A DNA stretch of 64,000 nucleotides, taken from the NCBI RefSeq assembly GCF_018139145.2, contig NC_059478.1:1364001-1428000 (forward strand), given 5' to 3'. This stretch comes from Gymnogyps californianus. Lineage: Eukaryota; Chordata; Aves; Accipitriformes; Cathartidae. Below are positions 20,038-63,255 of the stretch, piece by piece (positions within the stretch are counted from its first letter, which is position 1; each line of letters begins with the position of its first letter). The notes below the pieces were generated by a model. That model was not told the origin of the DNA. It made no database searches and worked only from the letters and a program-made list of their open reading frames with translations. The translations under genes and the position numbers were made by a program.

Positions 20038-20039
20038 TA

Positions 20040-43199: not shown

Positions 43200-44100
43200 A
43201 GAGGAGAAGAGCTCCAGCCGGATCCAACAGCCCGAGAGCAGCGAGGCTGCTGCCGCTGTGCATCCTCTGGTCTAAGGAGTCACAAGGCTGATGAAGAGTG
43301 ACCAGCAGACAGATACACAAAGCACAAATACAAACTACTTATATACAGAGATACAAACACCACCAATGGCCTTATCCTGCTCCCCTCTCTGGCTGAAGAG
43401 GATGGAAGTCCATGAGTGAGACTGAACGTACACACTGGGGAAGGTGGAGCCCTCCGGCTGCTGGGCTCAGGCACTCAGCCTGCCGAGGAGCTGGCCCCTG
43501 CCTCCCAGTCTCCCCAGTTGCTGGCCCCTGCATGTAGGAGCCCCGGAGGCCGCAGCCCTTCTCCAGCTGTGGTACACACCGTCCCACACCCCCCGAGCCG
43601 CACGGGGCTCCCCAGGTCCCATAGCCGACCCACTGTGCTCTCACCACTGGAGACACCCAGGGTCTCTCACACCCAGGGCTGGCCGTCAGAGACCTGCTCA
43701 CCCCCTTGCTCCCAGGCCACGTCACCTGCTCACCGACTGCTGCGGCTTCATCTTCGCTGGTGCTCACACGCTCTCTGGCACACCCGCACTCGCTCCAGTC
43801 GCTGCCCCAAGGACACGGGGGCCCTCCGCCCCGTGGTCTGACCCCAGCTGCTGCGCTCACAGCCGCGCACACGCCCGAGCACACAGGACGGAGAGCCCTC
43901 CGCCAGGACAGAGCCAGGAAGAATTGAATAGGGAGACAGGACAGACTGAGCTGGTCAGGCGCAGGGCATGGCCAGGCAAGCACACTGTCCAGCCAACTGT
44001 CGACACGCGACTGGCCCTTCTTGGCCCCTTGCCTCTCTGTTTGCCCTACTCTTGTTCCTCCCCAAGTCACCTGCACCTCTCTCTTGTCCTGCCTTTGGCT
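43200..44100 (-). other. GC-rich block with minus-strand TATA-like site; possible LTR or promoter
   Basis: Composition changes abruptly from AT-rich to GC-rich at about 43200 and continues to the left edge of the macrosatellite at 44101. On the minus strand TATATAAG lies near 43336-43343, followed by a T-rich leader and a short frame starting MHSGSSLAALGLLD (ATG at about 43263). The upstream GC-rich part has an open frame of 234 codons on the minus strand with no recognisable domain. The layout, GC-rich upstream sequence then TATA then a short leader, would fit an LTR read on the minus strand or a host promoter. I cannot assign either. Confidence 0.35.
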
Positions 44101-45022
44101 CCTCCCCTAAACATCCCAAAAGAAGCCCTGTGCCATCCCAAACTGCTTTTCCTGTGCAGCCCAGAACGCGTCCCACCCCTTGGCAGCAACTCCCTCAGGC
44201 TGAGGTGATCCGGAGAGCTGCTCCCCATGGCTCATGGTGGCGGGTGTGCCGCCTGGACCCCGGGGCTGATGCCTCTGCCGGGACAGCCCTGGGAGGAGCC
44301 CGAACAAGGTGCTCTTTCCTCGGGAGGCCTTGCTTTGGGTCCCCACCTCCACTGTGCATCCCTTCGTGCTCTGCCGGCTTGTGCAGATGGATGGGCCTTT
44401 GATGGGCTGATGGCCACTTGATGGGCTGATGGCCCCTGGGGCAGGTTAGGCTAGGATTGGGGCTCCTCCTCCTCCTGCCATCGTCTCTTGGAGCTCCTTG
44501 GTGGGCGTGCAGAGGAGCTTTCTCCCAAGAGCCCCCTGGCAGCTACCAAACAGGGGCTCTTCCCTTCCCAGCTCTTGCTGGGGCAGTACCGGCAGAGGCA
44601 AAGATTGCTCTTAATGCTGGGCTGAGTCAGGGGAGTGGGAGATGCTGCTTCTCCTGGGAAGCCCAGCAAGGTTCCCTTGAGCCATGCCCTTAGAAGCCCC
44701 ACGCACAGCAGGATCATCAGGAGCTAAGAGCTCCTCCGAGCATGCGCTCTCGGTGCTGGGAGTCATTTGTCGGGGTGCCCTGCACTCAGGTGCCTTCTCC
44801 ATCCTCTCTTCAAGGCAAGGAGCCCTGGATCTCCCTGCCTCATGGAAAGAGCATCTGCCTGACCATGGCTGAAGAGAGAGACGAGAGACTGGTCGCCAAA
44901 CAGAGCTGGGGGTAAAGTGCAGCTTGGGCCAACCGCCATCCTTTCTGTTTGTGAATCAACCCGCTCACCGGCTCAGGCAGTGGCAAACTCCGCATTGGAG
45001 GGATCATTCAGCCCTGGCCATG

Positions 45023-45340
45023 TGTTGTGGTTTAGGCCCAGCCGGCAACAAAGCACCACGCAGCCGCTCGCTCACTCCTCGCCCCTCACTGGGATGGGAG
45101 GAGAAAATACAACGAAAGGCTCGTGAGTCGAGACAAGGGCAGGGAGGGATCACTCACCAATTATGGTCACAGGCAAAACAGATTCGACTTGGGGAAAAAG
45201 AAATCGATTTAACTGGTTATCAATCAAATCAGAGTAGGATAATGAGAAACAGAACCATATCTTAAAAACACACCTTCCCGCCACCCCTCCCTTCTTCCCA
45301 GGCTCGGCTTTGCTCCTGATTCCTCTACCTCCTCCCAGTG
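45023..45340 (-). mobile_element. ERVK-like LTR fragment embedded in unit 1
   Basis: On the minus strand this is the 3' third of an ERVK-like LTR: GGTGTG and TTAAGATATGG, then AATCTGTTTTGCCTGTGACC, AATTGGTGAGTGATC, GTCTCGACTCACGAGC and the terminal GGCCTAAACCACAACA at 45023. It is homologous to the end of the LTR at 29735-30582. The LTR 5' part is absent. Confidence 0.7.
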
Positions 45341-45505
45341 TGCGTGGGCAGCAAGGGCAGTCCCGCAGCCCGGGCTGTGCTTGCAAGGGTGCAGGCGGCA
45401 CCGCAGGGAGGGCATTCCTCCCCGCCACTGGGCCTGGGAGAGACTGCGCCCGGGCACAGTGTCCGGGCTTGGGCTGGCGGGGTCCAGGCCGACACGGGCC
45501 ACCGA

Positions 45506-45569
45506 GAGCGTATTAAAGGGGGTTCTTTGCCGACCCACAGCGTATTAACGTGGGTTCTTTGCCGACCGA
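45506..45569. repeat. 32-bp tandem duplication, unit 1
   Basis: Two units of 32 bp starting GAGCGTATTAA and containing GGGTTCTTTGCCGACC. The second unit begins CAGCG in this copy only. Confidence 0.85.
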
Positions 45570-45642
45570 GGAGAGAGACAAGGACGCTTAGCACAGAATT
45601 GGACTGGCACAGATAGGCATTGGGGAAAAAGCTTCCCAAGTT

Positions 45643-45648
45643 TTTATT
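45643..45648 (-). terminator. Polyadenylation signal AATAAA, unit 1 gene
   Basis: AATAAA on the minus strand, about 130 bp after the stop at 45777. It is the canonical hexamer and is conserved in every unit. Confidence 0.6.
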
Positions 45649-45776
45649 TAGAGCAGAGAGCGGCCACAGACGGGCTGAGGCTGGCAGCGGGACGTCCTTG
45701 GGGCAGCTGACTGCCTTGGGCACCGTCCATCCATCGCGTGCCTGCCCGTGCCGCTCCCGCTGGGAAATGCGCAGCC

Positions 45777-48537
45777 TCAGGGCCAGCAGCCACCTTCGGA
45801 GACCCGCCTGGAGCTGTCAGCTGGGTGCCGCTGCTCTCCCTGTGCCGTGAGGCAGCTCCAGGAGAAAGCCCAGCGCAGAGCCCGACGGGCCGTCCTGACG
45901 ACGGAGTGCCATCGCCGGCGAGCTGGGGGGCGCGGGAGGGCAGCGATGCCTGGCGGGGAAGGAGAGCTGGAGGCGAGGGGCTGGGCAGGCACCGGGCAAG
46001 CCCCCACCGGCCCCCCAGCCAAGAAGGGCTTTTCCTGGGGAGTGGTGGCCTGGGCATGGCTAGCCTCCGTGCGTGCTGCCTCGGCCTCCTCCACGGCGGC
46101 TACAGGCAAGGCAGAAGCCGACGGCTTTGCATCTTCTGGCACTGCTGCGGGGACAGGTGCTCTGCACCCCTCCTCCCAGGGATCTCCGGCCAGGGGAGAA
46201 GCTGCTGGCTCTGCCTCTTCGTCTTTTAGCGCAGCAAGAGGCACGCTCTGTTGGTCGCTGTCTCCCTGTCCTGCAGCCCCTCTCTCAGGGACCTCTTCCT
46301 CTTCCGACTCTTCCAGCAGCTCCTCCAGAAGAGTATACCAGGCCATGGGGCCGTCAGAGGCAGAGCCCTGCCCTTCAGCCCTTGCTGCAAAGTCCTGGTC
46401 ATTCAGGATGCCCCGAGCAGCCCCCACAGTTTCGGCACCATCGTCTCCGCCTGGGGCACGGCCGCAGGCAAGGGAGACGCCGACGGCTGTGCATCTTGAG
46501 GCGCTGATGCAGGGAGAGTCGCACTTGGACTCTCCTCACAGGAGCCTCCAGGCGATGGCAGAAGTTGAGCAGACCGGTGTCCTCAGGCGCTGACGTGGGG
46601 AGAGGCTCGCTGTGCCCCTGGTCCCTGGGACCTCTGGCCAGGGGAGAATCTGCTGGCTCTGCCTCGGACTCTTCTGACAGGGCAGGAGACGCACGCTCTG
46701 AGTAGCCATCTGCCTCTCCTGCGGCCTCTCTGGCCATGCTGCTGGGGGAGCCGGGCACCTGCTGGGGGCCTGCATCTGGCTCCTGGCTGAGACTTGAGAG
46801 GCTGGGGCTGACACAGATGGTGTGGATGGAGGTGTCTTCCTCCAGGTAGGAGGGGACCTCTCCTGACAGGTCTTCGTACATTTCATCATCCTCCTCTTCC
46901 TCCAGCTCCTCCAGCTCCTCCAGCTCAGCCATCTTGAGGCGCACAACCAGAAGACGCTTCGGAGCATCCATAGGCCCTGTGCGCAGCGGCATGCCATGCA
47001 CACGTCGCAAGGGTGGCAGACGATGGCCCTGCCTTGCCATCGACCGTTCCCAGAGCCCTTCGGTGCACCTGCCCGGGGCAACTGGTTCACAGGCCTCCCC
47101 AGTAGCCCCGGTGCCCCTTTGAGCATGGGGATCAGGCCCTGGCTGAGCTGCAGGGGTCTTGCAACCCCACGCGGCCTCCACCTGGGCTGTTCTTGCCGGT
47201 GACGCCAGAGCAGTGGTGTGCGCAAGGTGCCCCTGGACCACCACCTGCTGGCTGGGTTCCCAGCTTCCAGCTACAGCGTGACCCGGTACCCCTGACAGAA
47301 ACGCCTGGACTGAGGACTCCAGAGCAACGTCAGGGCTTGTGGGGCTGTGTGGGGCAGGCCCCCATCTCTCCGCCCTCACTGCCATGCTCCAGTCACCGAG
47401 GATGCCCCGAGCAGGTGGCACAAGCTCTCGGGGGCTGCTGGCCGCGAGGCCCACGGCGTGTGCTCTGCCTCTCCGAGAAGACCCGGAGGCTGCTGCTGGC
47501 AGAGCGGGCAGCTTGGTGACACTTGCAGGCCCTGCTGCTGGAGCTGCACGTGCATGCCAGGGTGCAGCTGCCTGCGTCGCTTCAAGCCTTGGGACAGACG
47601 GCAAGTCTGGCATGGGCACTCTTTCTGGCCGTGTGACCCTGCTGCGGGGCAGTGCCTCCCGGCCCTCCAGCCCATCCGTCTGCAAGAGAAGGTGTGGAGA
47701 AAGGCCGTGGGACTGTGGTCCTTTTCCCCCGCATGCCAGCGGGAAACCCCCTGCACCCAGGCTGTCCTGCCAGCTCTGAAGGCAGTGCTCAGTCCTGCGG
47801 GTGGCTGCTGCCGTGCTCCCAGAGCCGGCTGAGGAGAGGCCTGGAGCCCACGTGGCCCTCACCAGGCCCAGGGAGCACCCCCGACATGCCCGGGCAGCCT
47901 GCCAGGCACGGCACGGGGCTCTCAGCTTGCTGGGGGGCCGGTCCCACCGGTCCCCTCCGGGACCTCCCGCCTTCCCATCGGCACCTCCCGGGGTCGGGAA
48001 GGCCTTGGGCCCCGTCTCCCTCCAGCTCCCTACCTGTGTGCTGAGGCTCCAGGTGCCCTGTGAGCTCCCTGGGTCAGGGAGCAGATTGAGCCTGTCCCCA
48101 TGGAGGGGCGAGATCGTGGTCCAGCTATGCTGCGGGGCTGCCTGGGGCTGCCTGGGGCGCACCTGCGGGGAGAAGGAGAGGCGCGGGATGGAGGCGGCTG
48201 TGTCGGCACAGCGGCCCCCACAGTGCCAGCAAGCCCGGCAAGCCCGGCAGTCCAGGCAGCTCCTGGCCACGACAGCCAGGCGCAGCTCGCTTCCGAGCTG
48301 CTCTCTGCCTCCGGGGCATCGCTGCGGGCCCGCGCGGGCCTCGGCCATCCCAGCGCCGGCTCTGCCCCAGAGAAGCCCCCGGGGACGGGCATGGCTGGCC
48401 ATCTTCCCCCCAGCCCTCCCCCACCTCCCGCTGCCAGCCTCTCCCTCCAGCCCCATCCCTCACCTGGCGGCGCTTGTGCAGCAGCGGCAGCCCTCACGGG
48501 GCTGGGAGTGGGCGTTCGCCCTCTGCTTCGCTGGCAT
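45777..48537 (-). pseudogene. Macrosatellite gene, unit 1 (frame broken)
   Basis: The exon layout matches unit 2: exon 1 48537-48464, exon 2 48162-48034, exon 3 47679-45777, introns of 301 and 354 bp with GT...AG ends. Exon 1 is 74 bp instead of 75 because one C is missing from a C run, which shifts the frame. In exon 3, two extra bases near 46557-46585 and one missing base near 46447 scramble the C-terminal third before the usual frame would resume one base off. The AATAAA is at 45643-45648. The indels lie mostly in short homopolymers, so sequencing error is possible. As written the copy cannot make the full protein. Confidence 0.6.
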
Positions 48538-49706
48538 CTTCGGGTCCTCTGCCGGACACCTGCCACGGGCACCCAGGGGAGATGCTGCCTCCTGATGGAG
48601 CCGCTCTCCTGGGAGTGGCCATCCCAGGGCTCTGGCCCCAGAAGAGCCCCCACCGTGCGGGCCGCCGTGCGGACCCCCTGTCACAATGGCCTCTGGGCAC
48701 GATGCCGGCCCGGGTCACAAAGGCCTGGCGGTCACCGCGGAGACGCCCCTGCCCGTCTGCGGGCAGCCCCCTGGGGACACGGTTCCTCCCCTAAACATCC
48801 CAAAAGAAGCCCTGTGCCATCCCAAACTGCTTTTCCTGTGCAGCCCAGAACGCGTCCCACCCCTTGGCAGCAACTCCCTCAGGCTGAGGTGATCCGGAGA
48901 GCTGCTCCCCATGGCTCATGGTGGCGGGTGTGCCGCCTGGACCCCGGGGCTGATGCCTCTGCCGGGACAGCCCTGGGAGGAGCCCGAACAAGGTGCTCTT
49001 TCCTCGGGAGGCCTTGCTTTGGGTCCCCACCTCCACTGTGCATCCCTTCGTGCTCTGCCGGGCTTGTGCAGATGGATGGGCCTTTGATGGGCTGATGGCC
49101 ACTTGATGGGCTGATGGCCCCTGGGGCAGGTTAGGCTAGGATTGGGCTCCTCCTCCTCCTGCCATCGTCTCTTGGAGCTCCTTGGTGGGCGTGCAGAGGA
49201 GCTTTCTCCCAAGAGCTCCCTGGCAGCTACCAAACAGGGGCTCTTCCCTTCCCAGCTCTTGCTGGGGCAGTACCGGCAGAGGCAAAGATTGCTCTTAATG
49301 CTGGGCTGAGTCAGGGGAGTGGGAGATGCTGCTTCTCCTGGGAAGCCCAGCAAGGTTCCCTTGAGCCATGCCCTTAGAAGCCCCACGCACAGCAGGATCA
49401 TCAGGAGCTAAGAGCTCCTCCGAGCATGCGCTCTCGGTGCTGGGAGTCATTTGTCGGGGTGCCCTGCACTCAGGTGCCTTCTCCATCCTCTCTTCAAGGC
49501 AAGGAGCCCTGGATCTCCCTGCCTCATGGAAAGAGCATCTGCCTGACCATGGCTGAAGAGAGAGACGAGAGACTGGTCGCCAAACAGAGCTGGGGGTAAA
49601 GTGCAGCTTGGGCCAACCGCCATCCTTTCTGTTTGTGAATCAACCCGCTCACCGGCTCAGGCAGTGGCAAACTCCGCATTGGAGGGATCATTCAGCCCTG
49701 GCCATG

Positions 49707-50024
49707 TGTTGTGGTTTAGGCCCAGCCGGCAACAAAGCACCACGCAGCCGCTCGCTCACTCCTCGCCCCTCACTGGGATGGGAGGAGAAAATACAACGAA
49801 AGGCTCGTGAGTCGAGACAAGGGCAGGGAGGGATCACTCACCAATTATGGTCACAGGCAAAACAGATTCGACTTGGGGAAAAAGAAATCGATTTAACTGG
49901 TTATCAATCAAATCAGAGTAGGATAATGAGAAACAGAACCATATCTTAAAACACACCTTCCCGCCACCCCTCCCTTCTTCCCAGGCTCGGCTTTGCTCCT
50001 GATTCCTCTACCTCCTCCCAGTGT
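49707..50024 (-). mobile_element. ERVK-like LTR fragment embedded in unit 2
   Basis: Same fragment as in unit 1, one unit length away. Confidence 0.7.
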
Positions 50025-50188
50025 GCGTGGGCAGCAAGGGCAGTCCCGCAGCCCGGGCTGTGCTTGCAAGGGTGCAGGCGGCACCGCAGGGAGGGCATTC
50101 CTCCCCGCCACTGGGCCTGGGAGAGACTGCGCCCGGGCACAGTGTCCGGGCTTGGGCTGGCGGGGTCCAGGCCGACACGGGCCACCGA

Positions 50189-50252
50189 GAGCGTATTAAA
50201 GGGGGTTCTTTGCCGACCGAGAGCATATTAACGTGGGTTCTTTGCCGACCGA
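50189..50252. repeat. 32-bp tandem duplication, unit 2
   Basis: Same two-unit 32-bp duplication. The second unit reads GAGCATATTAA. Confidence 0.85.
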
Positions 50253-50325
50253 GGAGAGAGACAAGGACGCTTAGCACAGAATTGGGCCTGGCACAGATAG
50301 GCATTGGGAAAAAGCTTCTCAAGTT

Positions 50326-50331
50326 TTTATT
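50326..50331 (-). terminator. Polyadenylation signal AATAAA, unit 2 gene
   Basis: The same hexamer 129 bp beyond the stop of the intact copy. The sequence after it on the minus strand becomes T/G/C-rich (GTCCTTGTCTCTCTCCTCGG), as expected for a downstream element. Confidence 0.65.
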
Positions 50332-50459
50332 TAGAGCAGAGAGCGGCCACAGACGGGCTGAGGCTGGCAGCGGGACGTCCTTGGGGCAGCTGACTGCCTT
50401 GGGCACCGTCCATCCATCGCGTGCCTGCCCGTGCCGCTCCCGCTGGGAAATGCGCAGCC

Positions 50460-53219
50460 TCAGGACCAGCAGCCACCTTCGGAGACCCGCCTGGAGCTGT
50501 CAGCTGGGTGCCGCTGCTCTCCCTGTGCCGTGAGGCAGCTCCAGGAGAAAGCCCAGCGCAGAGCCCGACGGGCCGTCCTGACGACGGAGTGCCATCGCCG
50601 GCGAGCTGGGGGGCGCGGGAGGGCAGCGATGCCTGGCGGGGAAGGAGAGCTGGAGGCGAGGGGCTGGGCAGGCACCGGGCAAGCCCCCACCGGCCCCCCA
50701 GCCAAGAAGGGCTTTTCCTGGGGAGTGGTGGCCTGGGCATGGCTAGCCTCCGTGCGTGCTGCCTCGGCCTCCTCCACGGCGGCTACAGGCAAGGCAGAAG
50801 CCGACGGCTTTGCATCTTCTGGCACCGCTGCGGGGACAGGTGCTCTGCACCCCTCGTCCCAGGGATCTCCGGCCAGGGGAGAAGCTGCTGGCTCTGCCTC
50901 TTCGTCTTTTAGCGCAGCAAGAGGCACGCTCTGTTGGTCGCTGTCTCCCTGTCCTGCAGCCCCTCTCTCAGGGACCTCTTCCTCTTCCTGCTCTTCCAGC
51001 AGCTCCTCCAGAAGAGTATACCAGGCCATGGGGCCGTCAGAGGCAGAGCCCTGCCCTTCAGCCCTTGCTGCAAAGTCCTGGTCATTCAGGATGCCCCGAG
51101 CAGCCCCCACAGTTTCGGCACCATCGTCTGCCGCCTGGGGCACGGCCGCAGGCAAGGGAGACACCGACGGCTGTGCATCTTGAGGCGCTGATGCAGGGAG
51201 AGTCGCACTTGGACTCTCCTCACAGGAGCCTCCAGGCGATGGAGAAGTTGAGCAGACGGTGTCCTCAGGCGCTGACGTGGGGAGAGGCTCGCTGTGCCCC
51301 TGGTCCCTGGGACCTCTGGCCAGGGGAGAATCTGCTGGCTCTGCCTCGGACTCTTCTGACAGGGCAGGAGACGCACGCTCTGAGTAGCCGTCTGCCTCTC
51401 CTGCGGCCTCTCTGGCCATGCTGCTGGGGGAGCCGGGCACCTGCTGGGGGCCTGCATCTGGCTCCTGGCTGAGACTTGAGAGGCTGGGGCTGACACAGAT
51501 GGTGTGGATGGAGGTGTCTTCCTCCAGGTAGGAGGGGACCTCTCCTGACAGGTCTTCGTACATTTCATCATCCTCCTCTTCCTCCAGCTCCTCCAGCTCC
51601 TCCAGCTCAGCCATCTTGAGGCGCACAACCAGAAGACGCTTCGGAGCATCCATGGGCCCTGTGCGCAGCGGCATGCCATGCACACGTCGCAAGGGTGGCA
51701 GACGATGGCCCTGCCTTGCCATCGACCCTTCCCAGAGCCCTTCGGTGCACCTGCCCGGGGCAACTGGTTCACAGGCCTCCCCAGTAGCCCCGGTGCCCCT
51801 TTGAGCATGGGGATCAGGCCCTGGCTGAGCTGCAGGGGTCTTGCAACCCCACGCGGCCTCCACCTGGGCTGTTCTTGCCGGTGACGCCAGAGCAGTGGTG
51901 TGCGCAAGGTGCCCCTGGACCACCACCTGCTGGCTGGGTTCCCAGCTTGCAGCTACAGCGTGACCCGGTACCCCTGACAGAAACGCCTGGACTGAGGACT
52001 CCAGACCAACGTCAGGGCTTGTGGGGCTGTGTGGGGCAGGCCCCCATCTCTCCGCCCTCACTGCCATGCTCCAGTCACCGAGGATGCCCCGAGCAGGTGG
52101 CACAAGCTCTCGAGGGCTGCTGGCCGCGAGGCCCACGGCGTGTGCTCTGCCTCTCCGAGAAGACCCGGAGGCTGCTGCTGGCAGAGCGGGCAGCTTGGTG
52201 ACACTTGCAGGCCCTGCTGCTGGAGCTGCACGTGCATGCCAGGGTGCAGCTGCCTGCGTCGCTTCAAGCCTTGGGACAGACGGCAAGTCTGGCATGGGCA
52301 CTCTTTCTGGCCGTGTGACCCTGCTGCGGGGCAGTGCCTCCCGGCCCTCCAGCCCATCCGTCTGCAAGAGAAGGTGTGGAGAAAGGCCGTGGGACTGTGG
52401 TCCTTTTCCCCCGCATGCCAGCGGGAAACCCCCTGCACCCAGGCTGTCCTGCCAGCTCTGAAGGCAGTGCTCAGTCCTGCGGGTGGCTGCTGCCGTGCTC
52501 CCAGAGCCGGCTGAGGAGAGGCCTGGAGCCCACGTGGCCCTCACCAGGTCCAGGGAGCACCCCCGACATGCCCGGGCAGCCTGCCAGGCACGGCACGGGG
52601 CTCTCAGCTTGCTGGGGGGCCGGTCCCACCGGTCCCCTCCGGGACCTCCCGCCTTCCCATCGGCACCTCCCGGGGTCGGGAAGGCCTTGGGCCCCATCTC
52701 CCTCCAGCTCCCTACCTGTGTGCTGAGGCTCCAGGTGCCCTGTGAGCTCCCTGGGTCAGGGAGCAGATTGAGCCTGTCCCCATGGAGGGGCGAGATCGTG
52801 GTCCAGCTATGCTGCGGGGCTGCCTGGGGCTGCCTGGGGCGCACCTGCGGGGAGAAGGAGAGGCGCGGGATGGAGGCGGCTGTGTCGGCACAGCGGCCCC
52901 CGCAGTGCCGGCAAGCTCGGCAAGCCCGGCAGTCCAGGCAGCTCCTGGCCACGACAGCCAGGCGCAGCTCGCTTCCGAGCTGCTCTCTGCCTCCGGGGCA
53001 TCGCTGCGGGCCCGCGCGGGCCTCGGCCATCCCGGCGCCGGCTCTGCCCCAGAGAAGCCCCCGGGGACGGGCATGGCTGGCCATCTTCCCCCCAGCCCTC
53101 CCCCACCTCCCGCTGCCAGCCTCTCCCTCCAGCCCATCCCTCACCTGGCAGCGCTTGTGCAGCAGCGGCAGCCCCTCACGGGGCTGGGAGTGGGCGTTCG
53201 CCCTCTGCTTCGCTGGCAT
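50460..53219 (-). CDS. Unrecognised macrosatellite protein, three-exon model (unit 2, intact)
   Basis: Exons are 53219-53145, 52844-52716 and 52361-50460, all joined in phase 0, giving about 701 residues. The first ATG (53219, context GAAGATGC) opens MPAKQRANAHSQ. Donors are CAG/gtgagg and CAG/gtaggg. Acceptors are CTTCTCCCCGCAG and CACCTTCTCTTGCAG. The protein is rich in Pro, Ala, Ser and Glu and probably disordered. Features are a basic first exon, an acidic run ELEELEELEEEEDDEMYED at about 319-337, in-frame internal repeats (ARGIL at about 156 and 487; EAEPA.SPLA twice, 149 residues apart) and a basic C-terminus from about 655 (RRRWHSVVRTARRALRWAF). No signal peptide or membrane segment is obvious. 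AATAAA is at 50326-50331, about 130 bp past the stop. No TATA is seen upstream. Function is unknown. Only this copy keeps every exon in frame. Confidence 0.6.
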   Translation of the reverse strand: MPAKQRANAHSQPREGLPLLHKRCQVRDGLEGEAGSGRWGRAGGKMASHARPRGLLWGRAGAGMAEARAGPQRCPGGREQLGSELRLAVVARSCLDCRACRACRHCGGRCADTAASIPRLSFSPQVRPRQPQAAPQHSWTTISPLHGDRLNLLPDPGSSQGTWSLSTQVGSWREMGPKAFPTPGGADGKAGGPGGDRWDRPPSKLRAPCRAWQAARACRGCSLDLVRATWAPGLSSAGSGSTAAATRRTEHCLQSWQDSLGAGGFPLACGGKGPQSHGLSPHLLLQTDGLEGREALPRSRVTRPERVPMPDLPSVPRLEATQAAAPWHARAAPAAGPASVTKLPALPAAASGSSRRGRAHAVGLAASSPRELVPPARGILGDWSMAVRAERWGPAPHSPTSPDVGLESSVQAFLSGVPGHAVAASWEPSQQVVVQGHLAHTTALASPARTAQVEAAWGCKTPAAQPGPDPHAQRGTGATGEACEPVAPGRCTEGLWEGSMARQGHRLPPLRRVHGMPLRTGPMDAPKRLLVVRLKMAELEELEELEEEEDDEMYEDLSGEVPSYLEEDTSIHTICVSPSLSSLSQEPDAGPQQVPGSPSSMAREAAGEADGYSERASPALSEESEAEPADSPLARGPRDQGHSEPLPTSAPEDTVCSTSPSPGGSCEESPSATLPASAPQDAQPSVSPLPAAVPQAADDGAETVGAARGILNDQDFAARAEGQGSASDGPMAWYTLLEELLEEQEEEEVPERGAAGQGDSDQQSVPLAALKDEEAEPAASPLAGDPWDEGCRAPVPAAVPEDAKPSASALPVAAVEEAEAARTEASHAQATTPQEKPFLAGGPVGACPVPAQPLASSSPSPPGIAALPRPPARRRWHSVVRTARRALRWAFSWSCLTAQGEQRHPADSSRRVSEGGCWS

Positions 53220-53473
53220 CTTCGGGGTCCTCTGCCGGACACCTGCCACGGGCACCCAGGGGAGATGCTGCCTCCTGATGGAGCCGCTCTCCTGGGAGTG
53301 GCCACCCCAGGGCTCTGGCCCCAGAAGAGCCCCCACCGTGCGGGCCGCCGTGCGGACCCCCTGTCACAATGGCCTCTGGGCACGATGCCGGCCCGGGTCA
53401 CAAAGGCCTGGCGGTCACCGCGGAGACGCCCCTGCCCGTCTGCGGGCAGCCCCCTGGGGACACGGTTCCTCCC

Positions 53474-53602
53474 CTAAACATCCCAAAAGAAGCCCTGTGC
53501 CATCCCAAACTGCTTTTCCTGTGCAGCCCAGAACGCGTCCCACCCCTTGGCAGCAACTCCCTCAGGCTGAGGTGATCCGGAGAGCTGCTCCCCATGGCTC
53601 AT
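53474..53602 (-). other. Short ORF with near-ideal Kozak context upstream of the macrosatellite gene
   Basis: GCCACCATGA on the minus strand opens a 42-codon frame (MSHGEQLSGSPQPEGVAAKG, ending GFFWDV). It stops 254 bp before the ATG of the unit 2 gene. Identical frames occur at 44107-44235, 48791-48919, 58158-58286 and 62841-62969. It could be an upstream ORF in a long 5' leader, part of an unmodelled first exon, or chance. Its tryptophan/phenylalanine-rich end is unusual for random GC-rich DNA. Confidence 0.3.
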
Positions 53603-54390
53603 GGTGGCGGGTGTGCCGCCTGGACCCCGGGGCTGATGCCTCTGCCGGGACAGCCCTGGGAGGAGCCCGAACAAGGTGCTCTTTCCTCGGGAGGCCTTGC
53701 TTTGGGTCCCCACCTCCACTGTGCATCCCTTCGTGCTCTGCCGGGCTTGTGCAGGTGGATGGGCCTTTGATGGGCTGATGGCCACTTGATGGGCTGATGG
53801 CCCCTGGGGCAGGTTAGGCTAGGATTTGGGCTCCTCCTCCTCCTGCCATCGTCTCTTGGAGCTCCTTGGTGGGCGTGCAGAGGAGCTTTCTCCCAAGAGC
53901 TCCCTGGCAGCTACCAAACAGGGGCTCTTCCCTTCCCAGCTCTTGCTGGGGCAGTACCGGCAGAGGCAAAGATTGCTCTTAATGCTGGGCTGAGTCAGGG
54001 GAGTGGGAGATGCTGCTTCTCCTGGGAAGCCCAGCAAGGTTCCCTTGAGCCATGCCCTTAGAAGCCCCACGCACAGCAGGATCATCAGGAGCTAAGAGCT
54101 CCTCCGAGCATGCGCTCTCGGTGCTGGGAGTCATTTGTCGGGGTGCCCTGCACTCAGGTGCCTTCTCCATCCTCTCTTCAAGGCAAGGAGCCCTGGATCT
54201 CCCTGCCTCATGGAAAGAGCATCTGCCTGACCATGGCTGAAGAGAGAGACGAGAGACTGGTCGCCAAACAGAGCTGGGGGTAAAGTGCAGCTTGGGCCAA
54301 CCGCCATCCTTTCTGTTTGTGAATCAACCCGCTCACCGGCTCAGGCAGTGGCAAACTCCGCATTGGAGGGATCATTCAGCCCTGGCCATG

Positions 54391-54709
54391 TGTTGTGGTT
54401 TAGGCCCAGCCGGCAACAAAGCACCACGCAGCCGCTCGCTCACTCCTCGCCCCTCACTGGGATGGGAGGAGAAAATACAACGAAAGGCTCGTGAGTCGAG
54501 ACAAGGGCAGGGAGGGATCACTCACCAATTATGGTCACAGGCAAAACAGATTCGACTTGGGGAAAAAGAAATCGATTTAACTGGTTATCAATCAAATCAG
54601 AGTAGGATAATGAGAAACAGAACCATATCTTAAAACCACACCTTCCCGCCACCCCTCCCTTCTTCCCGGGCTCGGCTTTGCTCCTGATTCCTCTACCTCC
54701 TCCCAGTGT
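54391..54709 (-). mobile_element. ERVK-like LTR fragment embedded in unit 3
   Basis: Same fragment, with small differences in homopolymers (for example near 54635). Confidence 0.7.
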
Positions 54710-54872
54710 GCGTGGGCAGCAAGGGCAGTCCCGCAGCCCGGGCTGTGCTTGCAAGGGTGCAGGCGGCACCGCAGGGAGGGCATTCCTCCCCGCCACTGGG
54801 CCTGGGAGAGACTGCGCCCGGGCACAGTGTCCGGGCTTGGGCTGGCGGGTCCAGGCCGACACGGGCCACCGA

Positions 54873-54936
54873 GAGCGTATTAAAGGGGGTTCTTTGCCGA
54901 CCGAGAGCGTATTAACGTGGGTTCTTTGCCGACCGA
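54873..54936. repeat. 32-bp tandem duplication, unit 3
   Basis: Same two-unit duplication, with both units starting GAGCGTATTAA. Confidence 0.85.
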
Positions 54937-55010
54937 GGAGAGAGACAAGGACGCTTAGCACAGAATTGGACCTGGCACAGATAGGCATTGGGGAAAAAGC
55001 TTCCCAAGTT

Positions 55011-55016
55011 TTTATT
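55011..55016 (-). terminator. Polyadenylation signal AATAAA, unit 3 gene
   Basis: Conserved canonical hexamer at the corresponding position. Confidence 0.6.
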
Positions 55017-55144
55017 TAGAGCAGAGAGCGGCCACAGACGGGCTGAGGCTGGCAGCGGGACGTCCTTGGGGCAGCTGACTGCCTTGGGCACCGTCCATCC
55101 ATCGCGTGCCTGCCCGTGCCGCTCCCGCTGGGAAATGCGCAGCC

Positions 55145-57903
55145 TCAGGACCAGCAGCCACCTTCGGAGACCCGCCTGGAGCTGTCAGCTGGGTGCCGCT
55201 GCTCTCCCTGTGCCGTGAGGCAGCTCCAGGAGAAAGCCCAGCGCAGAGCCCGACGGGCCGTCCTGACGACGGAGTGCCATCGCCGGCGAGCTGGGGGGCG
55301 CGGGAGGGCAGCGATGCCTGGCGGGGAAGGAGAGCTGGAGGCGAGGGGCTGGGCAGGCACCGGGCAAGCCCCCACCGGCCCCCCAGCCAAGAAGGGCTTT
55401 TCCTGGGGAGTGGTGGCCTGGGCATGGCTAGCCTCCGTGCGTGCTGCCTCGGCCTCCTCCACGGCGGCTACAGGCAAGGCAGAAGCCGACGGCTTTGCAT
55501 CTTCTGGCACCGCTGCGGGGACAGGTGCTCTGCACCCCTCCTCCCAGGGATCTCCGGCCAGGGGAGAAGCTGCTGGCTCTGCCTCTTCGTCTTTTAGCGC
55601 AGCAAGAGGCACGCTCTGTTGGTCGCTGTCTCCCTGTCCTGCAGCCCCTCTCTCAGGGACCTCTTCCTCTTCCTGCTCTTCCAGCAGCTCCTCCAGAAGA
55701 GCATACCAGGCCATGGGGCCGTCAGAGGCAGAGCCCTGCCCTTCAGCCCTTGCTGCAAAGTCCTGGTCATTCAGGATGCCCCGAGCAGCCCCCACAGTTT
55801 CGGCACCATCGTCTGCCGCCTGGGGCACGGCCGCAGGCAAGGGAGACGCCGACGGCTGTGCATCTTGAGGCGCTGATGCAGGGAGAGTCGCACTTGGACT
55901 CTCCTCACAGGAGCCTCCAGGCGATGGAGAAGTTGAGCAGACGGTGTCCTCAGGCGCTGACGTGGGGAGAGGCTCGCTGTGCCCCTGGTCCCTGGGACCT
56001 CTGGCCAGGGGAGAATCTGCTGGCTCTGCCTCGGACTCTTCTGACAGGGCAGGAGACGCACGCTCTGAGTAGCCGTCTGCCTCTCCTGCGGCCTCTCTGG
56101 CCATGCTGCTGGGGAGCCGGGCACCTGCTGGGGGCCTGCATCTGGCTCCTGGCTGAGACTTGAGAGGCTGGGGCTGACACAGATGGTGTGGATGGAGGTG
56201 TCTTCCTCCAGGTAGGAGGGGACCTCTCCTGACAGGTCTTCGTACATTTCATCATCCTCCTCTTCCTCCAGCTCCTCCAGCTCCTCCAGCTCAGCCATCT
56301 TGAGGCGCACAACCAGAAGACGCTTCGGAGCATCCATGGGCCCTGTGCGCAGCGGCATGCCATGCACACGTCGCAAGGGTGGCAGACGATGGCCCTGCCT
56401 TGCCATCGACCGTTCCCAGAGCCCTTCGGTGCACCTGCCCGGGGCAACTGGTTCACAGGCCTCCCCAGTAGCCCCGGTGCCCCTTTGAGCATGGGATCAG
56501 GCCCTGGCTGAGCTGCAGGGGTCTTGCAACCCCACGCGGCCTCCACCTGGGCTGTTCTTGCCGGTGACGCCAGAGCAGTGGTGTGGGCAAGGTGCCCCTG
56601 GACCACCACCTGCTGGCTGGGTTCCCAGCTTGCAGCTACAGCGTGACCCGGTACCCCTGACAGAAACGCCTGGACTGAGGACTCCAGAGCAACGTCAGGG
56701 CTTGTGGGGCTGTGTGGGGCAGGCCCCCATCTCTCCGCCCTCACTGCCATGCTCCAGTCACCGAGGATGCCCCGAGCAGGTGGCACAAGCTCTCGGGGGC
56801 TGCTGGCCGCGAGGCCCACGGCGTGTGCTCTGCCTCTCCGAGAAGACCCGGAGGCTGCTGCTGGCAGAGCGGGCAGCTTGGTGACACTTGCAGGCCCTGC
56901 TGCTGGAGCTGCACGTGCATGCCAGGGTGCAGCTGCCTGCGTCGCTTCAAGCCTTGGGACAGACGGCAAGTTTGGCATGGGCACTCTTTCTGGCCGTGTG
57001 ACCCTGCTGCGGGGCAGTGCCTCCCGGCCCTCCAGCCCATCCGTCTGCAAGAGAAGGTGTGGAGAAAGGCCGTGGGACTGTGGTCCTTTTCCCCCGCATG
57101 CCAGCGGGAAACCCCCTGCACCCAGGCTGTCCTGCCAGCTCTGAAGGCAGTGCTCAGTCCTGCGGGTGGCTGCTGCCGTGCTCCCAGAGCCGGCTGAGGA
57201 GAGGCCTGGAGCCCACGTGGCCCTCACCAGGTCCAGGGAGCACCCCCGACATGCCCGGGCAGCCTGCCAGGCACGGCACGGGGCTCTCAGCTTGCTGGGG
57301 GGCCGGTCCCACCGGTCCCCTCCGGGACCTCCCGCCTTCCCATCGGCACCTCCCGGGGTCGGGAAGGCCTTGGGCCCCGTCTCCCTCCAGCTCCCTACCT
57401 GTGTGCTGAGGCTCCAGGTGCCCTGTGAGCTCCCTGGGTCAGGGAGCAGATTGAGCCTGTCCCCATGGAGGGGCGAGATCGTGGTCCAGCTATGCTGCGG
57501 GGCTGCCTGGGGCTGCCTGGGGCGCACCTGCGGGGAGAAGGAGAGGCGCGGGATGGAGGCGGCTGTGTCGGCACAGCGGCCCCCGCAGTGCCGGCAAGCT
57601 CGGCAAGCCCGGCAGTCCAGGCAGCTCCTGGCCACGACAGCCAGGCGCAGCTCGCTTCCGAGCTGCTCTCTGCCTCCGGGGCATCGCTGCGGGCCCGCGC
57701 GGGCCTCGGCCATCCCGGCGCCGGCTCTGCCCCAGAGAAGCCCCCGGGGACGGGCATGGCTGGCCATCTTCCCCCCAGCCCTCCCCCACCTCCCGCTGCC
57801 AGCCTCTCCCTCCAGCCCCATCCCTCACCTGGCGGCGCTTGTGCAGCAGCGGCAGCCCCTCACGGGGCTGGGAGTGGGCGTTCGCCCTCTGCTTCGCTGG
57901 CAT
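55145..57903 (-). pseudogene. Macrosatellite gene, unit 3 (two frameshifts)
   Basis: Exons are 57903-57829, 57527-57399 and 57044-55145, with introns of 301 and 354 bp and the same splice signals as unit 2. Exons 1 and 2 are intact. Exon 3 is two bases short: one G is missing from the run near 56488 (GCATGGGATC) and one from the run near 56111 (GCTGGGGAGC). The first puts the middle of the protein, including the acidic run, out of frame. The C-terminal 319 codons are open in the original relative frame. AATAAA is at 55011-55016. Both lesions are in G homopolymers, so assembly error cannot be excluded. Confidence 0.6.
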
Positions 57904-59073
57904 CTTCGGGGTCCTCTGCCGGACACCTGCCACGGGCACCCAGGGGAGATGCTGCCTCCTGATGGAGCCGCTCTCCTGGGAGTGGCCACCCCAGGGCTCT
58001 GGCCCCAGAAGAGCCCCCACCGTGCGGGCCGCCGTGCGGACCCCCTGTCACAATGGCCTCTGGGCACGATGCCGGCCCGGGTCACAAAGGCCTGGCGGTC
58101 ACCGCGGAGACGCCCCTGCCCGTCTGCGGGCAGCCCCCTGGGGACACGGTTCCTCCCCTAAACATCCCAAAAGAAGCCCTGTGCCATCCCAAACTGCTTT
58201 TCCTGTGCAGCCCAGAACGCGTCCCACCCCTTGGCAGCAACTCCCTCAGGCTGAGGTGATCCGGAGAGCTGCTCCCCATGGCTCATGGTGGCGGGTGTGC
58301 CGCCTGGACCCCGGGGCTGATGCCTCTGCCGGGACAGCCCTGGGAGGAGCCCGAACAAGGTGCTCTTTCCTCGGGAGGCCTTGCTTTGGGTCCCCACCTC
58401 CACTGTGCATCCCTTCGTGCTCTGCCGGGCTTGTGCAGATGGATGGGCCTTTGATGGGCTGATGGCCACTTGATGGGCTGATGGCCCCTGGGGCAGGTTA
58501 GGCTAGGATTGGGCTCCTCCTCCTCCTGCCATCGTCTCTTGGAGCTCCTTGGTGGGCGTGCAGAGGAGCTTTCTCCCAAGAGCTCCCTGGCAGCTACCAA
58601 ACAGGGGCTCTTCCCTTCCCAGCTCTTGCTGGGGCAGTACCGGCAGAGGCAAAGATTGCTCTTAATGCTGGGCTGAGTCAGGGGAGTGGGAGATGCTGCT
58701 TCTCCTGGGAAGCCCAGCAAGGTTCCCTTGAGCCATGCCCTTAGAAGCCCCACGCACAGCAGGATCATCAGGAGCTAAGAGCTCCTCCGAGCATGCGCTC
58801 TCGGTGCTGGGAGTCATTTGTCGGGGTGCCCTGCACTCAGGTGCCTTCTCCATCCTCTCTTCAAGGCAAGGAGCCCTGGATCTCCCTGCCTCATGGAAAG
58901 AGCATCTGCCTGACCATGGCTGAAGAGAGAGACGAGAGACTGGTCGCCAAACAGAGCTGGGGGTAAAGTGCAGCTTGGGCCAACCGCCATCCTTTCTGTT
59001 TGTGAATCAACCCGCTCACCGGCTCAGGCAGTGGCAAACTCCGCATTGGAGGGATCATTCAGCCCTGGCCATG

Positions 59074-59394
59074 TGTTGTGGTTTAGGCCCAGCCGGCAAC
59101 AAAGCACCACGCAGCCGCTCGCTCACTCCTCGCCCCTCACTGGGATGGGAGGAGAAAATACAACGAAAGGCTCGTGAGTCGAGACAAGGGCAGGGAGGGA
59201 TCACTCACCAATTATGGTCACAGGCAAAACAGATTCGACTTGGGGAAAAAGAAATCGATTTAACTGGTTATCAATCAAATCAGAGTAGGATAATGAGAAA
59301 CAGAACCATATCTTAAAAACACACCTTCCCGCCACCCCTCCCTTCTTCCCAGGCTCGGCTTTGCTCCTGATTCCTCTACCTCCTCCCAGTGTGC
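59074..59394 (-). mobile_element. ERVK-like LTR fragment embedded in unit 4
   Basis: Same fragment, one unit further on. Confidence 0.7.
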
Positions 59395-59556
59395 GTGGGC
59401 AGCAAGGGCAGTCCCGCAGCCCGGGCTGTGCTTGCAAGGGTGCAGGCGGCACCGCAGGGAGGGCATTCCTCCCCGCCACTGGGCCTGGGAGAGACTGCGC
59501 CCGGGCACAGTGTCCGGGCTTGGGCTGGCGGGGTCCAGGCCGACACGGGCCACCGA

Positions 59557-59620
59557 GAGCGTATTAAAGGGGGTTCTTTGCCGACCGAGAGCGTATTAAC
59601 GTGGGTTCTTTGCCGACCGA
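59557..59620. repeat. 32-bp tandem duplication, unit 4
   Basis: Same two-unit duplication, as in unit 3. Confidence 0.85.
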
Positions 59621-59694
59621 GGAGAGAGACAAGGACGCTTAGCACAGAATTGGACCTGGCACAGATAGGCATTGGGGAAAAAGCTTCCCAAGTT

Positions 59695-59700
59695 TTTATT
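59695..59700 (-). terminator. Polyadenylation signal AATAAA, unit 4 gene
   Basis: Conserved canonical hexamer at the corresponding position. Confidence 0.6.
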
Positions 59701-59827
59701 TAGAGCAGAGAGCGGCCACAGACGGGCTGAGGCTGGCAGCGGGACGTCCTTGGGGCAGCTGACTGCCTTGGGCACCGTCCATCCATCGCGTGCCTGCCCG
59801 TGCCGCTCCGCTGGGAAATGCGCAGCC

Positions 59828-62586
59828 TCAGGACCAGCAGCCACCTTCGGAGACCCGCCTGGAGCTGTCAGCTGGGTGCCGCTGCTCTCCCTGTGCCGTG
59901 AGGCAGCTCCAGGAGAAAGCCCAGCGCAGAGCCCGACGGGCCGTCCTGACGACGGAGTGCCATCGCCGGCGAGCTGGGGGGCGCGGGAGGGCAGCGATGC
60001 CTGGCGGGGAAGGAGAGCTGGAGGCGAGGGGCTGGGCAGGCACCGGGCAAGCCCCCACCGGCCCCCAGCCAAGAAGGGCTTTTCCTGGGGAGTGGTGGCC
60101 TGGGCATGGCTAGCCTCCGTGCGTGCTGCCTCGGCCTCCTCCACGGCGGCTACAGGCAAGGCAGAAGCCGACGGCTTTGCATCTTCTGGCACCGCTGCGG
60201 GGACAGGTGCTCTGCACCCCTCGTCCCAGGGATCTCCGGCCAGGGGAGAAGCTGCTGGCTCTGCCTCTTCGTCTTTTAGCGCAGCAAGAGGCACGCTCTG
60301 TTGGTCGCTGTCTCCCTGTCCTGCAGCCCCTCTCTCAGGGACCTCTTCCTCTTCCGACTCTTCCAGCAGCTCCTCCAGAAGAGTATACCAGGCCATGGGG
60401 CCGTCAGAGGCAGAGCCCTGCCCTTCAGCCCTTGCTGCAAAGTCCTGGTCATTCAGGATGCCCCGAGCAGCCCCCACAGTTTCGGCACCATCGTCTGCCG
60501 CCTGGGGCACGGCCGCAGGCAAGGGAGACGCCGACGGCTGTGCATCTTGAGGCGCTGATGCAGGGAGAGTCGCACTTGGACTCTCCTCACAGGAGCCTCC
60601 AGGCGATGGAGAAGTTGAGCAGACGGTGTCCTCAGGCGCTGACGTGGGGAGAGGCTCGCTGTGCCCCTGGTCCCTGGGACCTCTGGCCAGGGGAGAATCT
60701 GCTGGCTCTGCCTCGGACTCTTCTGACAGGGCAGGAGACGCACGCTCTGAGTAGCCGTCTGCCTCTCCTGCGGCCTCTCTGGCCATGCTGCTGGGGGAGC
60801 CGGGCACCTGCTGGGGGCCTGCATCTGGCTCCTGGCTGAGACTTGAGAGGCTGGGGCTGACACAGATGGTGTGGATGGAGGTGTCTTCCTCCAGGTAGGA
60901 GGGGACCTCTCCTGACAGGTCTTCGTACATTTCATCATCCTCCTCTTCCTCCAGCTCCTCCAGCTCCTCCAGCTCAGCCATCTTGAGGCGCACAACCAGA
61001 AGACGCTTCGGAGCATCCATGGGCCCTGTGCGCAGCGGCATGCCATGCACACGTCGCAAGGGTGGCAGACGATGGCCCTGCCTTGCCATCGACCGTTCCC
61101 AGAGCCCTTCGGTGCACCTGCCCGGGGCAACTGGTTCACAGGCCTCCCCAGTAGCCCCGGTGCCCCTTTGAGCATGGGGATCAGGCCCTGGCTGAGCTGC
61201 AGGGGTCTTGCAACCCCACGCGGCCTCCACCTGGGCTGTTCTTGCCGGTGACGCCAGAGCAGTGGTGTGGGCAAGGTGCCCCTGGACCACCACCTGCTGG
61301 CTGGGTTCCCAGCTTGCAGCTACAGCGTGACCCGGTACCCCTGACAGAAACGCCTGGACTGAGGACTCCAGAGCAACGTCAGGGCTTGTGGGGCTGTGTG
61401 GGGCAGGCCCCCATCTCTCCGCCCTCACTGCCATGCTCCAGTCACCGAGGATGCCCCGAGCAGGTGGCACAAGCTCTCGGGGGCTGCTGGCCGCGAGGCC
61501 CACGGCGTGTGCTCTGCCTCTCCGAGAAGACCGGAGGCTGCTGCTGGCAGAGCGGGCAGCTTGGTGACACTTGCAGGCCCTGCTGCTGGAGCTGCACGTG
61601 CATGCCAGGGTGCAGCTGCCTGCGTCGCTTCAAGCCTTGGGACAGACGGCAAGTCTGGCATGGGCACTCTTTCTGGCCGTGTGACCCTGCTGCGGGGCAG
61701 TGCCTCCCGGCCCTCCAGCCCATCCGTCTGCAAGAGAAGGTGTGGAGAAAGGCCGTGGGACTGTGGTCCTTTTCCCCCGCATGCCAGCGGGAAACCCCCT
61801 GCACCCAGGCTGTCCTGCCAGCTCTGAAGGCAGTGCTCAGTCCTGCGGGTGGCTGCTGCCGTGCTCCCAGAGCCGGCTGAGGAGAGGCCTGGAGCCCACG
61901 TGGCCCTCACCAGGTCCAGGGAGCACCCCCGACATGCCCGGGCAGCCTGCCAGGCACGGCACGGGGCTCTCAGCTTGCTGGGGGGCCGGTCCCACCGGTC
62001 CCCTCCGGGACCTCCCGCCTTCCCATCGGCACCTCCCGGGGTCGGGAAGGCCTTGGGCCCCGTCTCCCTCCAGCTCCCTACCTGTGTGCTGAGGCTCCAG
62101 GTGCCCTGTGAGCTCCCTGGGTCAGGGAGCAGATTGAGCCTGTCCCCATGGAGGGGCGAGATCGTGGTCCAGCTATGCTGCGGGGCTGCCTGGGGCTGCC
62201 TGGGGCGCACCTGCGGGGAGAAGGAGAGGCGCGGGATGGAGGCGGCTGTGTCGGCACAGCGGCCCCCGCAGTGCCGGCAAGCTCGGCAAGCCCGGCAGTC
62301 CAGGCAGCTCCTGGCCACGACAGCCAGGCGCAGCTCGCTTCCGAGCTGCTCTCTGCCTCCGGGGCATCGCTGCGGGCCCGCGCGGGCCTCGGCCATCCCG
62401 GCGCCGGCTCTGCCCCAGAGAAGCCCCCGGGGACGGGCATGGCTGGCCATCTTCCCCCCAGCCCTCCCCCACCTCCTGCTGCCAGCCTCTCCCTCCAGCC
62501 CCATCCCTCACCTGGCGGCGCTTGTGCAGCAGCGGCAGCCCCTCACGGGGCTGGGAGTGGGCGTTCGCCCTCTGCTTCGCTGGCAT
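59828..62586 (-). pseudogene. Macrosatellite gene, unit 4 (two frameshifts)
   Basis: Exons are 62586-62512, 62210-62082 and 61727-59828, with introns of 301 and 354 bp and the same splice signals. Exons 1 and 2 are intact. Exon 3 lacks one C near 61530 (AGACCGG), which truncates the normal frame after about 60 residues of that exon, and one C near 60064 (GGCCCCCAGC), which replaces the basic C-terminus with a different tail running to 59596. From 61503 to about 60070 the usual frame is open. AATAAA is at 59695-59700. Homopolymer error is again a possible explanation. Confidence 0.6.
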
Positions 62587-63145
62587 CTTCGGGGTCCTCT
62601 GCCGGACACCTGCCACGGGCACCCAGGGGAGATGCTGCCTCCTGATGGAGCCGCTCTCCTGGGAGTGGCCACCCCAGGGCTCTGGCCCCAGAAGAGCCCC
62701 CACCGTGCGGGCCGCCGTGCGGACCCCCTGTCACAATGGCCTCTGGGCACGATGCCGGCCCGGGTCACAAAGGCCTGGCGGTCACCGCGGAGACGCCCCT
62801 GCCCGTCTGCGGGCAGCCCCCTGGGGACACGGTTCCTCCCCTAAACATCCCAAAAGAAGCCCTGTGCCATCCCAAACTGCTTTTCCTGTGCAGCCCAGAA
62901 CGCGTCCCACCCCTTGGCAGCAACTCCCTCAGGCTGAGGTGATCCGGAGAGCTGCTCCCCATGGCTCATGGTGGCGGGTGTGCCGCCTGGACCCCGGGGC
63001 TGATGCCTCTGCCGGGACAGCCCTGGGAGGAGCCCGAACAAGGTGCTCTTTCCTCGGGAGGCCTTGCTTTGGGTCCCCACCTCCACTGTGCATCCCTTCG
63101 TGCTCTGCCGGGCTTGTGCAGATGGATGGGCCTTTGATGGGCTGA

Positions 63146-63255
63146 TAGACCTTGTGATGGGCTTTGGAGTAGCCAGATAGCCTACTATTTGAGTTCCCCC
63201 TCCTGCCATTGTCTCTTGGAGCTCCATGGTGCATGTGTAGAGGAGCTTTGTCACA
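63146..63255. repeat. Diverged continuation of the partial fifth macrosatellite unit
   Basis: At about 63146 identity to the other units falls abruptly, but similarity continues: CTCCTGCCATTGTCTCTTGGAGCTCC aligns to the segment near 44473-44498 with few changes. It ends near GAGGAGCTTTGTCAC. Beyond about 63255 the DNA is AT-rich and unrelated. Confidence 0.7.

What the first reader, a model, noticed from the sequence alone, without database searches (positions are those of the whole stretch)
44101..63145. A 4.68-kb GC-rich macrosatellite that appears to carry a gene in every unit
Four full head-to-tail units (lengths 4684, 4683, 4684, 4683) and a partial fifth, nearly identical, sit in AT-rich DNA. 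Coding macrosatellites of similar size exist in mammals (D4Z4/DUX4, RS447/USP17, CT47) and tend to be germline-expressed and epigenetically silenced. I know of no described avian counterpart with this content. High CpG content despite being repetitive suggests recent amplification or protection from methylation decay.
Basis: partly seen in the sequence, partly recalled or inferred. Interest (0 to 1): 0.88.

Follow-up and report, generated by a model that had tools for sequence, protein, structure and literature searches.

The report
FSIP2-related gene in bird macrosatellite arrays
This genome, evidently a bird's, holds three head-to-tail arrays of one gene family, one of them the four-copy array in this window; the gene is related by sequence to bird proteins that carry a sperm-tail (FSIP2) domain, lacks that domain itself, and likely makes a fast-changing testis protein, although only one of the four copies here is unbroken.

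Summary
The macrosatellite is real: window 44097-63256, four units of 4684/4683/4684/4683 bp, 99.2-99.7% identical, plus 426 bp. Each unit holds a predicted three-exon gene on the minus strand; start codon, splice sites and poly(A) signal are the same in all ten copies compared (4 here, 6 in a second array). Only one of the four window copies is open end to end (701 aa). The genome has two more arrays of the family: one 0.8 Mb away (6.81-kb unit, 6 genes) and one on contig C14 (14-15 copies, about 80% DNA identity). Relatives occur in crane, bald eagle, owl, ibis, shearwater, shag, manakin, whydah and zebra finch, mostly as 'uncharacterized protein'. Kiwi, rhea, emu and ostrich relatives carry the Pfam FSIP2 domain (sperm fibrous sheath-interacting protein 2); the window family aligns on both sides of that domain and lacks it. 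I read it as an FSIP2-domain-gene derivative, likely testis-expressed, amplified and homogenised as coding macrosatellites. Expression and function are untested. dN/dS of 0.73-0.85 and frameshifts in most copies keep a decaying-array reading alive.

The parts
44097..63256 (.). Array A: 4.09 head-to-tail copies of a 4683/4684-bp unit
53145..53219 (-). Exon 1 (75 nt, 25 codons, ATG) of the one unbroken copy (A3); donor CAG|GTGA
52716..52844 (-). Exon 2 (129 nt) of copy A3; acceptor CCGCAG, donor CAG|GTAGG
50460..52361 (-). Exon 3 of copy A3 with stop codon; predicted protein of 701 aa
   Evidence: holds an internal repeat, 50832-50966 against 51279-51413, 77%
50326..50331 (-). AATAAA, 128 nt past the stop codon of copy A3
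45777..48537 (-). Gene copy A2 (exons projected: 48464-48537, 48034-48162, 45777-47679); frameshifts, first stop at codon 169
55145..57903 (-). Gene copy A4 (57829-57903, 57399-57527, 55145-57044); frameshifts, first stop at codon 433
59828..62586 (-). Gene copy A5 (62512-62586, 62082-62210, 59828-61727); frameshifts, first stop at codon 169
49703..50019 (.). High-copy dispersed element inside the array A unit (unit positions 923-1239), absent from the array B unit
   Evidence: shown for one unit, its place repeats in each
43300..44096 (.). Dispersed GC-rich element abutting the left end of the array; copies of part of it lie just downstream of the gene in the C14 units (14 C14 places) and in the right flank of array B

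Best explanation
The array is a macrosatellite whose every unit carries a predicted three-exon gene, apparently derived from a bird gene with an FSIP2 domain, and it likely grew by unequal exchange and supplies many copies of a fast-evolving, probably testis-expressed protein. Shown: the tandem units, the same gene anatomy in every unit, two further arrays of the family in this genome, homologues in many birds, and sequence similarity on both sides of a domain that is FSIP2 in kiwi, rhea, emu and ostrich and is missing here. Inferred: arrays A and B share a founding junction, each array is homogenised on its own, and the FSIP2 region was deleted from an ancestor of this family. Untested: transcription, a role in sperm, and any effect of copy number.
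For: Units 99.2-99.7% identical. ATG, four splice sites and AATAAA identical in 10 of 10 copies of arrays A and B; exon 1 and 2 lengths and splice sites also found in 2 of 2 C14 copies. Crane protein 72% identical over 97% of the query in this frame; bald eagle protein, annotated independently, runs through the same three exons. Second array C8:2202420-2241436 with 6 genes, third on C14 with 14 gene places. Units group by array, support A 70/92, B 93/93, C14 100/100. Array A begins at core 3447 and array B ends at core 3446, and the longer C14 matches begin at the same point. PF15783 in kiwi, rhea, emu, ostrich proteins (1e-27 to 4e-41) and, weaker, in an ibis relative (1.3e-10). Profile comparison of the window family with the palaeognath proteins scores 197.9 against a maximum of 28.8 in 30 local-composition shuffles and jumps over the FSIP2 core. 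Exons 1-2 against the ostrich N-terminus: 0 of 1000 shuffles as good.
Against: 3 of 4 window copies and 2 of 6 array B copies are broken, and 2 more B copies are open only with a locally shifted frame. Single-base indels are not clearly avoided in coding sequence: 15 distinct positions inside, 20 outside, about equal lengths (my count). dN/dS 0.73 (A3-B1) and 0.85 (A3-C14); the first 249 codons of exon 3 give 1.07 against C14. No AATAAA was found in the two C14 slices. The window protein itself has no Pfam match. Kiwi exons 1-2 fail the shuffle test, 66 of 1000 as good. Four of the five palaeognath proteins were fetched with a query that held the FSIP2 region, so that all carry it is partly by construction. 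No expression data.
Confidence: 0.66

Rival explanations
1. A decaying array: a former gene that was amplified as passive satellite DNA, now largely pseudogenes without function. The frames left open are recent survivors.
For: Half of the copies of arrays A and B (5 of 10) have a truncated frame; dN/dS near 1 in parts; indels spread over coding and noncoding sequence; CpG decay.
Against: Start, splice sites and poly(A) signal unchanged in 10 of 10 copies; the only indel fixed between A and B inside the coding sequence is 3 bp, the two fixed outside are 9 and 32 bp; the frame is kept in crane and bald eagle; exons 1 and 2 have dN/dS 0.44 and 0.39 against C14, on few sites; 29 of 46 single-base indel cells lie in homopolymers of 3 or more, where read errors are common.
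Confidence: 0.26
2. The tandem repetition or its copy number is an assembly error.
For: Near-identical units are a known hazard; no reads were available.
Against: Units differ from one another by 9-27 mismatches, no N in the window or the array B region, and two other arrays with other unit lengths exist.
Confidence: 0.04
3. A noncoding macrosatellite whose long frames are chance in GC-rich DNA.
For: Many other frames of 120 codons or more are open on both strands.
Against: Bird proteins match one frame of the minus strand, with matching splice junctions in the bald eagle protein.
Confidence: 0.02
4. The similarity to FSIP2-domain proteins is shared low complexity, not descent, so that the sperm link is empty.
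For: The proteins are rich in A, P, E and S; predicted models are low-confidence; the kiwi N-terminus fails the shuffle test.
Against: Shuffles that keep local composition reach at most 28.8 against 197.9; ostrich and emu N-termini beat 1000 of 1000 shuffles; the ibis protein holds both the exon 1-2 sequence (score 157, 0 of 1000) and an FSIP2 match.
Confidence: 0.07

Closest known systems
Palaeognath FSIP2-domain proteins (kiwi, rhea, emu LOC135329235, ostrich)
   Same: Profile similarity over 282 columns, N-terminal exon 1-2 similarity for ostrich and emu
   Different: They carry PF15783; the window family lacks it. Their copy number was not examined.
Mammalian FSIP2
   Same: Shares PF15783 with the palaeognath relatives, not with the window gene
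   Different: 6907 aa in human (PMC11276731, passages); the window protein is 701 aa and has no PF15783 match
D4Z4/DUX4 macrosatellite
   Same: A gene inside each unit of a kb-sized tandem array (PMC5849414, abstract start in listing)
   Different: DUX4 is a retrogene there; here each unit has a gene with two introns and no sequence relation was sought
Chicken Z-macrosatellite
   Same: An avian macrosatellite, with transcription units on lampbrush loops (PMC7397634, passages)
   Different: Reported at GGAZq and chromosome ends; array A lies 1.4 Mb inside a 37-Mb contig and the C14 array near mid-contig. Sequences not compared.
C5 array of this genome (unit about 4656 bp)
   Same: Another kb-sized tandem array whose unit holds a Mab-21_C coding stretch
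   Different: Shares only the ~320-bp dispersed element with array A

Membership tests
Coding macrosatellite | kb-sized, nearly identical units head to tail | tested here: met
Coding macrosatellite | A gene in each unit | tested here: met
   Anatomy in 4 of 4 window copies; unbroken in 1 of 4
Coding macrosatellite | Copy number varies between individuals | not testable with these tools
   one assembly only
Coding macrosatellite | Germline expression, silencing elsewhere | not testable with these tools
   no expression or methylation data; CpG decay only hints at germline methylation
FSIP2 (PF15783) | Match to the FSIP2 profile over its cut-off | tested here: not met
   0 families in 7 window frames at E up to 1
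FSIP2-domain gene lineage of birds | Homology to FSIP2-domain proteins outside the domain | tested here: met
   hhalign 197.9 against a shuffled maximum of 28.8; ostrich N-terminus 0 of 1000 shuffles; kiwi N-terminus fails, 66 of 1000. Hence 'FSIP2-derived', not 'FSIP2'
FSIP2-domain gene lineage of birds | Shared synteny with the palaeognath gene | not testable with these tools
FSIP2-domain gene lineage of birds | Testis expression, sperm-tail location | not testable with these tools
   none

The most novel reading that the evidence does not exclude
When neognath birds lost the ribs and columns of the sperm fibrous sheath, an FSIP2-domain gene shed its structural domain and became a dose-amplified, fast-evolving sperm gene that repeatedly builds macrosatellites on different chromosomes, driven by sperm competition or meiotic conflict.
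Probability: 0.17. Interest if true: 0.82.

Novelty: new member of a known kind. Interest (0 to 1): 0.6.

Why it matters
It adds a bird example, with three arrays in one genome, to the gene-bearing macrosatellites known from mammals, and links it by sequence to a sperm-tail domain. The ribs and longitudinal columns of the sheath are reported for emu and tinamou and absent in Neognathae (PMC11276731, passages); a gene family whose FSIP2 domain is present in palaeognath members and missing in most others examined makes that loss open to test at gene level. Three arrays of one gene in one genome also allow a direct study of how arrays are homogenised.

Tried and rejected
Pfam on seven window frames gave nothing at E up to 1. 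Structure prediction of relative P0010 (13 sequences) and of rhea P0029 (6 sequences) gave mean pLDDT 37.8 and 39.0, so I ran no fold search. No solved structure matches ostrich P0031 at E up to 1. PF15783 in the own genome gave one match, C9:10062198-10062578, with 8 stops; ostrich P0031 also matches C9:11566868-11567179 without stops in its FSIP2 region, so I do not claim that this genome lost the domain. A review counts FSIP2 as widely present in vertebrates (PMC11276731, section 16). An internal start of the protein (as annotated for the crane) was considered: the corresponding Met of A3 is Thr in array B copies, and the bald eagle annotation starts at exon 1, so I keep the three-exon model, although exon 3 before that point shows no constraint against C14. 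The C5 array shares only a dispersed element with array A. Sex-chromosome or germline-restricted origin and the species were not tested.

Paper searches (this library only): FSIP2+birds+tandem, 0 papers; macrosatellite+bird, 78, 15 listed; fibrous sheath+ostrich+spermatozoa, 7; FSIP2+chicken, 19, 15 listed; a four-term search, 0; two of FSIP2/avian/gene duplication, 2,261, 10 listed, none of the 10 holding FSIP2; macrosatellite+avian genome, 5; five gene accessions, 0; fibrous sheath interacting protein+birds, 3; ampliconic and related terms, 52, 12 listed. By title and abstract start none of those listed describes this family.
Full report
Observation. The array exists as described. Self-matching gives 4683/4684-bp offsets and one diagonal covering 44097-63256. 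The units are 4684, 4683, 4684 and 4683 bp and 99.19-99.66% identical, followed by 426 bp of a fifth. GC is 0.57-0.72 per kb in the array and 0.396 in window 1-43000.

Genome context. The window is C8:1364001-1428000 of a genome of 1.24 Gb in 542 contigs. The same search found a second array on C8 with a 6.81-kb unit; it spans C8:2202420-2241436, about 5.7 units, and shares a 4.25-kb core with array A. Core copies are 98.9-99.7% identical within an array and 96.5-97.2% between arrays over ungapped columns, nine copies compared. The crane protein led to a third array with 14 gene places between C14:11.283 and 11.406 Mb (only best candidates are scored there). The dispersed element that abuts array A occurs at 14 places in the same C14 stretch; the two lists together give 15 positions, 8.3-9.6 kb apart. 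In 20 kb read there, the unit is about 8.35 kb and matches the array A core at about 79-80%. Array A units hold a high-copy element that array B units lack; B units hold other sequence, part of it CR1-like by eye; C14 units hold frames that look retroviral by eye. Each array thus seems to have grown with its own insertions.

Breakpoints. Array A begins at core position 3447 and array B ends at 3446; the longer C14 matches begin at the corresponding point. A shared founding junction is the simplest reading, and is an inference. In a tree of 22 rows (4 A, 6 B, 11 of the 14 C14 places, 1 C294) each array forms one group, with support 70/92 (A, weak), 93/93 (B) and 100/100 (C14).

The gene. Bird proteins match one frame of the minus strand; the crane protein GRJ2_001734300 is 72% identical over 97% of the query. 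Splice signals give exon 1 (75 nt), exon 2 (129 nt) and a long exon 3. The bald eagle protein LOC104840059 runs through the same three pieces. In 10 of 10 copies of arrays A and B the ATG, both donors, both acceptors and AATAAA are the same. Exons 1 and 2 are also found in 2 of 2 C14 copies, but no AATAAA was found in those slices. Frames as assembled: A3, B1 and B2 open and colinear; B4 and B5 open with a locally shifted frame; A2, A4, A5, B3 and B6 truncated. In the window that is 1 of 4 unbroken. Of 46 single-base indel cells, 29 lie in homopolymers of at least 3, so read error is possible but not shown. By distinct position they number 15 in coding and 20 in noncoding sequence (my count), which gives no clear sign of frame protection inside the arrays. 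The one indel fixed between A and B inside the coding sequence is 3 bp; outside they are 9 and 32 bp.

Selection. dN/dS is 0.73 for A3-B1 (23.5 synonymous, 49.5 replacement changes) and 0.85 for A3 against a composite C14 sequence. Exons 1 and 2 give 0.44 and 0.39 against C14 on few sites; the first 249 codons of exon 3 give 1.07. This is weak constraint or fast mixed evolution and speaks against a confident functional claim.

Relatives. The full protein finds 19 proteins at E up to 0.001, only the best 7,992 candidates being scored. Named ones are from bald eagle, manakin, whydah, shearwater, owl, shag, ibis, zebra finch and kiwi; crane came. The ibis protein has a Pfam FSIP2 match at 1.3e-10 and the kiwi protein at 4.3e-41. 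A search with kiwi residues 400-800, which include the FSIP2 region, gave a second kiwi protein, rhea, emu and ostrich, all with FSIP2 (1.3e-27 to 3.7e-41). Because of that query, 5 of 5 is partly by construction. The shearwater, owl and shag proteins have no FSIP2 match, nor have 11 of 11 other relatives scanned. I did not scan eleven further hits.

Descent from an FSIP2-domain gene. Profile comparison of the window family (9 sequences) with four palaeognath proteins gives probability 99.6 and score 197.9 and jumps over the FSIP2 core; 30 shuffles that keep local composition reach at most 28.8. The middle group (shearwater, owl, shag, ibis) matches both. Exons 1-2 of A3 against N-termini: ostrich 90, emu 51 and 61, ibis 157, in each case 0 of 1000 shuffles as good; kiwi 34, 66 of 1000, not significant. 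The C-terminus of the rhea protein resembles that of the window protein by eye. I infer an internal deletion of the FSIP2 region.

Biology. Mutations of FSIP2 impair the sperm flagellum and its sheath in mammals; ribs and longitudinal columns of the sheath are reported in emu and tinamou and absent in Neognathae (PMC11276731, passages). Testis expression is predicted from the FSIP2 link alone.

CpG. Observed/expected is 0.48 in the unit and 0.20 in the flank. CpG columns hold 94 of 205 variable columns, 74 of them transitions, while 224 CpGs make up about a tenth of the bases of the 4253-bp core. The CpGs are decaying as in methylated DNA; their retention fits youth rather than protection.

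Verdict. A real, young macrosatellite carrying a gene of an FSIP2-derived bird family, with at least three arrays in this genome: a new member of a known kind, with function untested.

Noticed in passing
L015-L018 (C5:65668001-65708000): A further kb-sized tandem array, unit about 4656 bp, about 5.7 regular units plus rearranged copies; a frame in the unit matches Mab-21_C (4.6e-8), as in ITPRIP-like genes (recalled). Another gene-bearing macrosatellite in this genome.
   Followed up: partly
P0010 and P0016: These clusters stand for 26 and 20 sequences, and their contigs (6804 and 8837 bp) are close to the array B and C14 unit lengths; perhaps single-unit contigs of arrays in other assemblies.
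   Followed up: no
P0012 (ENA contig of 4438 bp): A protein that is array-B-like in its first part and C14-like in the rest: gene conversion between arrays or a chimeric contig.
   Followed up: no
C9:10062198-10062578 and C9:11566868-11567179: A degenerate FSIP2 match with 8 stops, and 1.5 Mb away an open stretch like the ostrich FSIP2 region; perhaps the ancestral neighbourhood.
   Followed up: partly
window 18551-18888: A minisatellite with 30/60/84-bp periods.
   Followed up: no
window 19090-22291 and 28586-29191: Frames that look by eye like an endogenous retrovirus and a CR1 retrotransposon.
   Followed up: no
window 43300-44096: A dispersed GC-rich element found at many places, several on unplaced contigs (41 matches among the scored candidates), of unknown kind.
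   Followed up: partly
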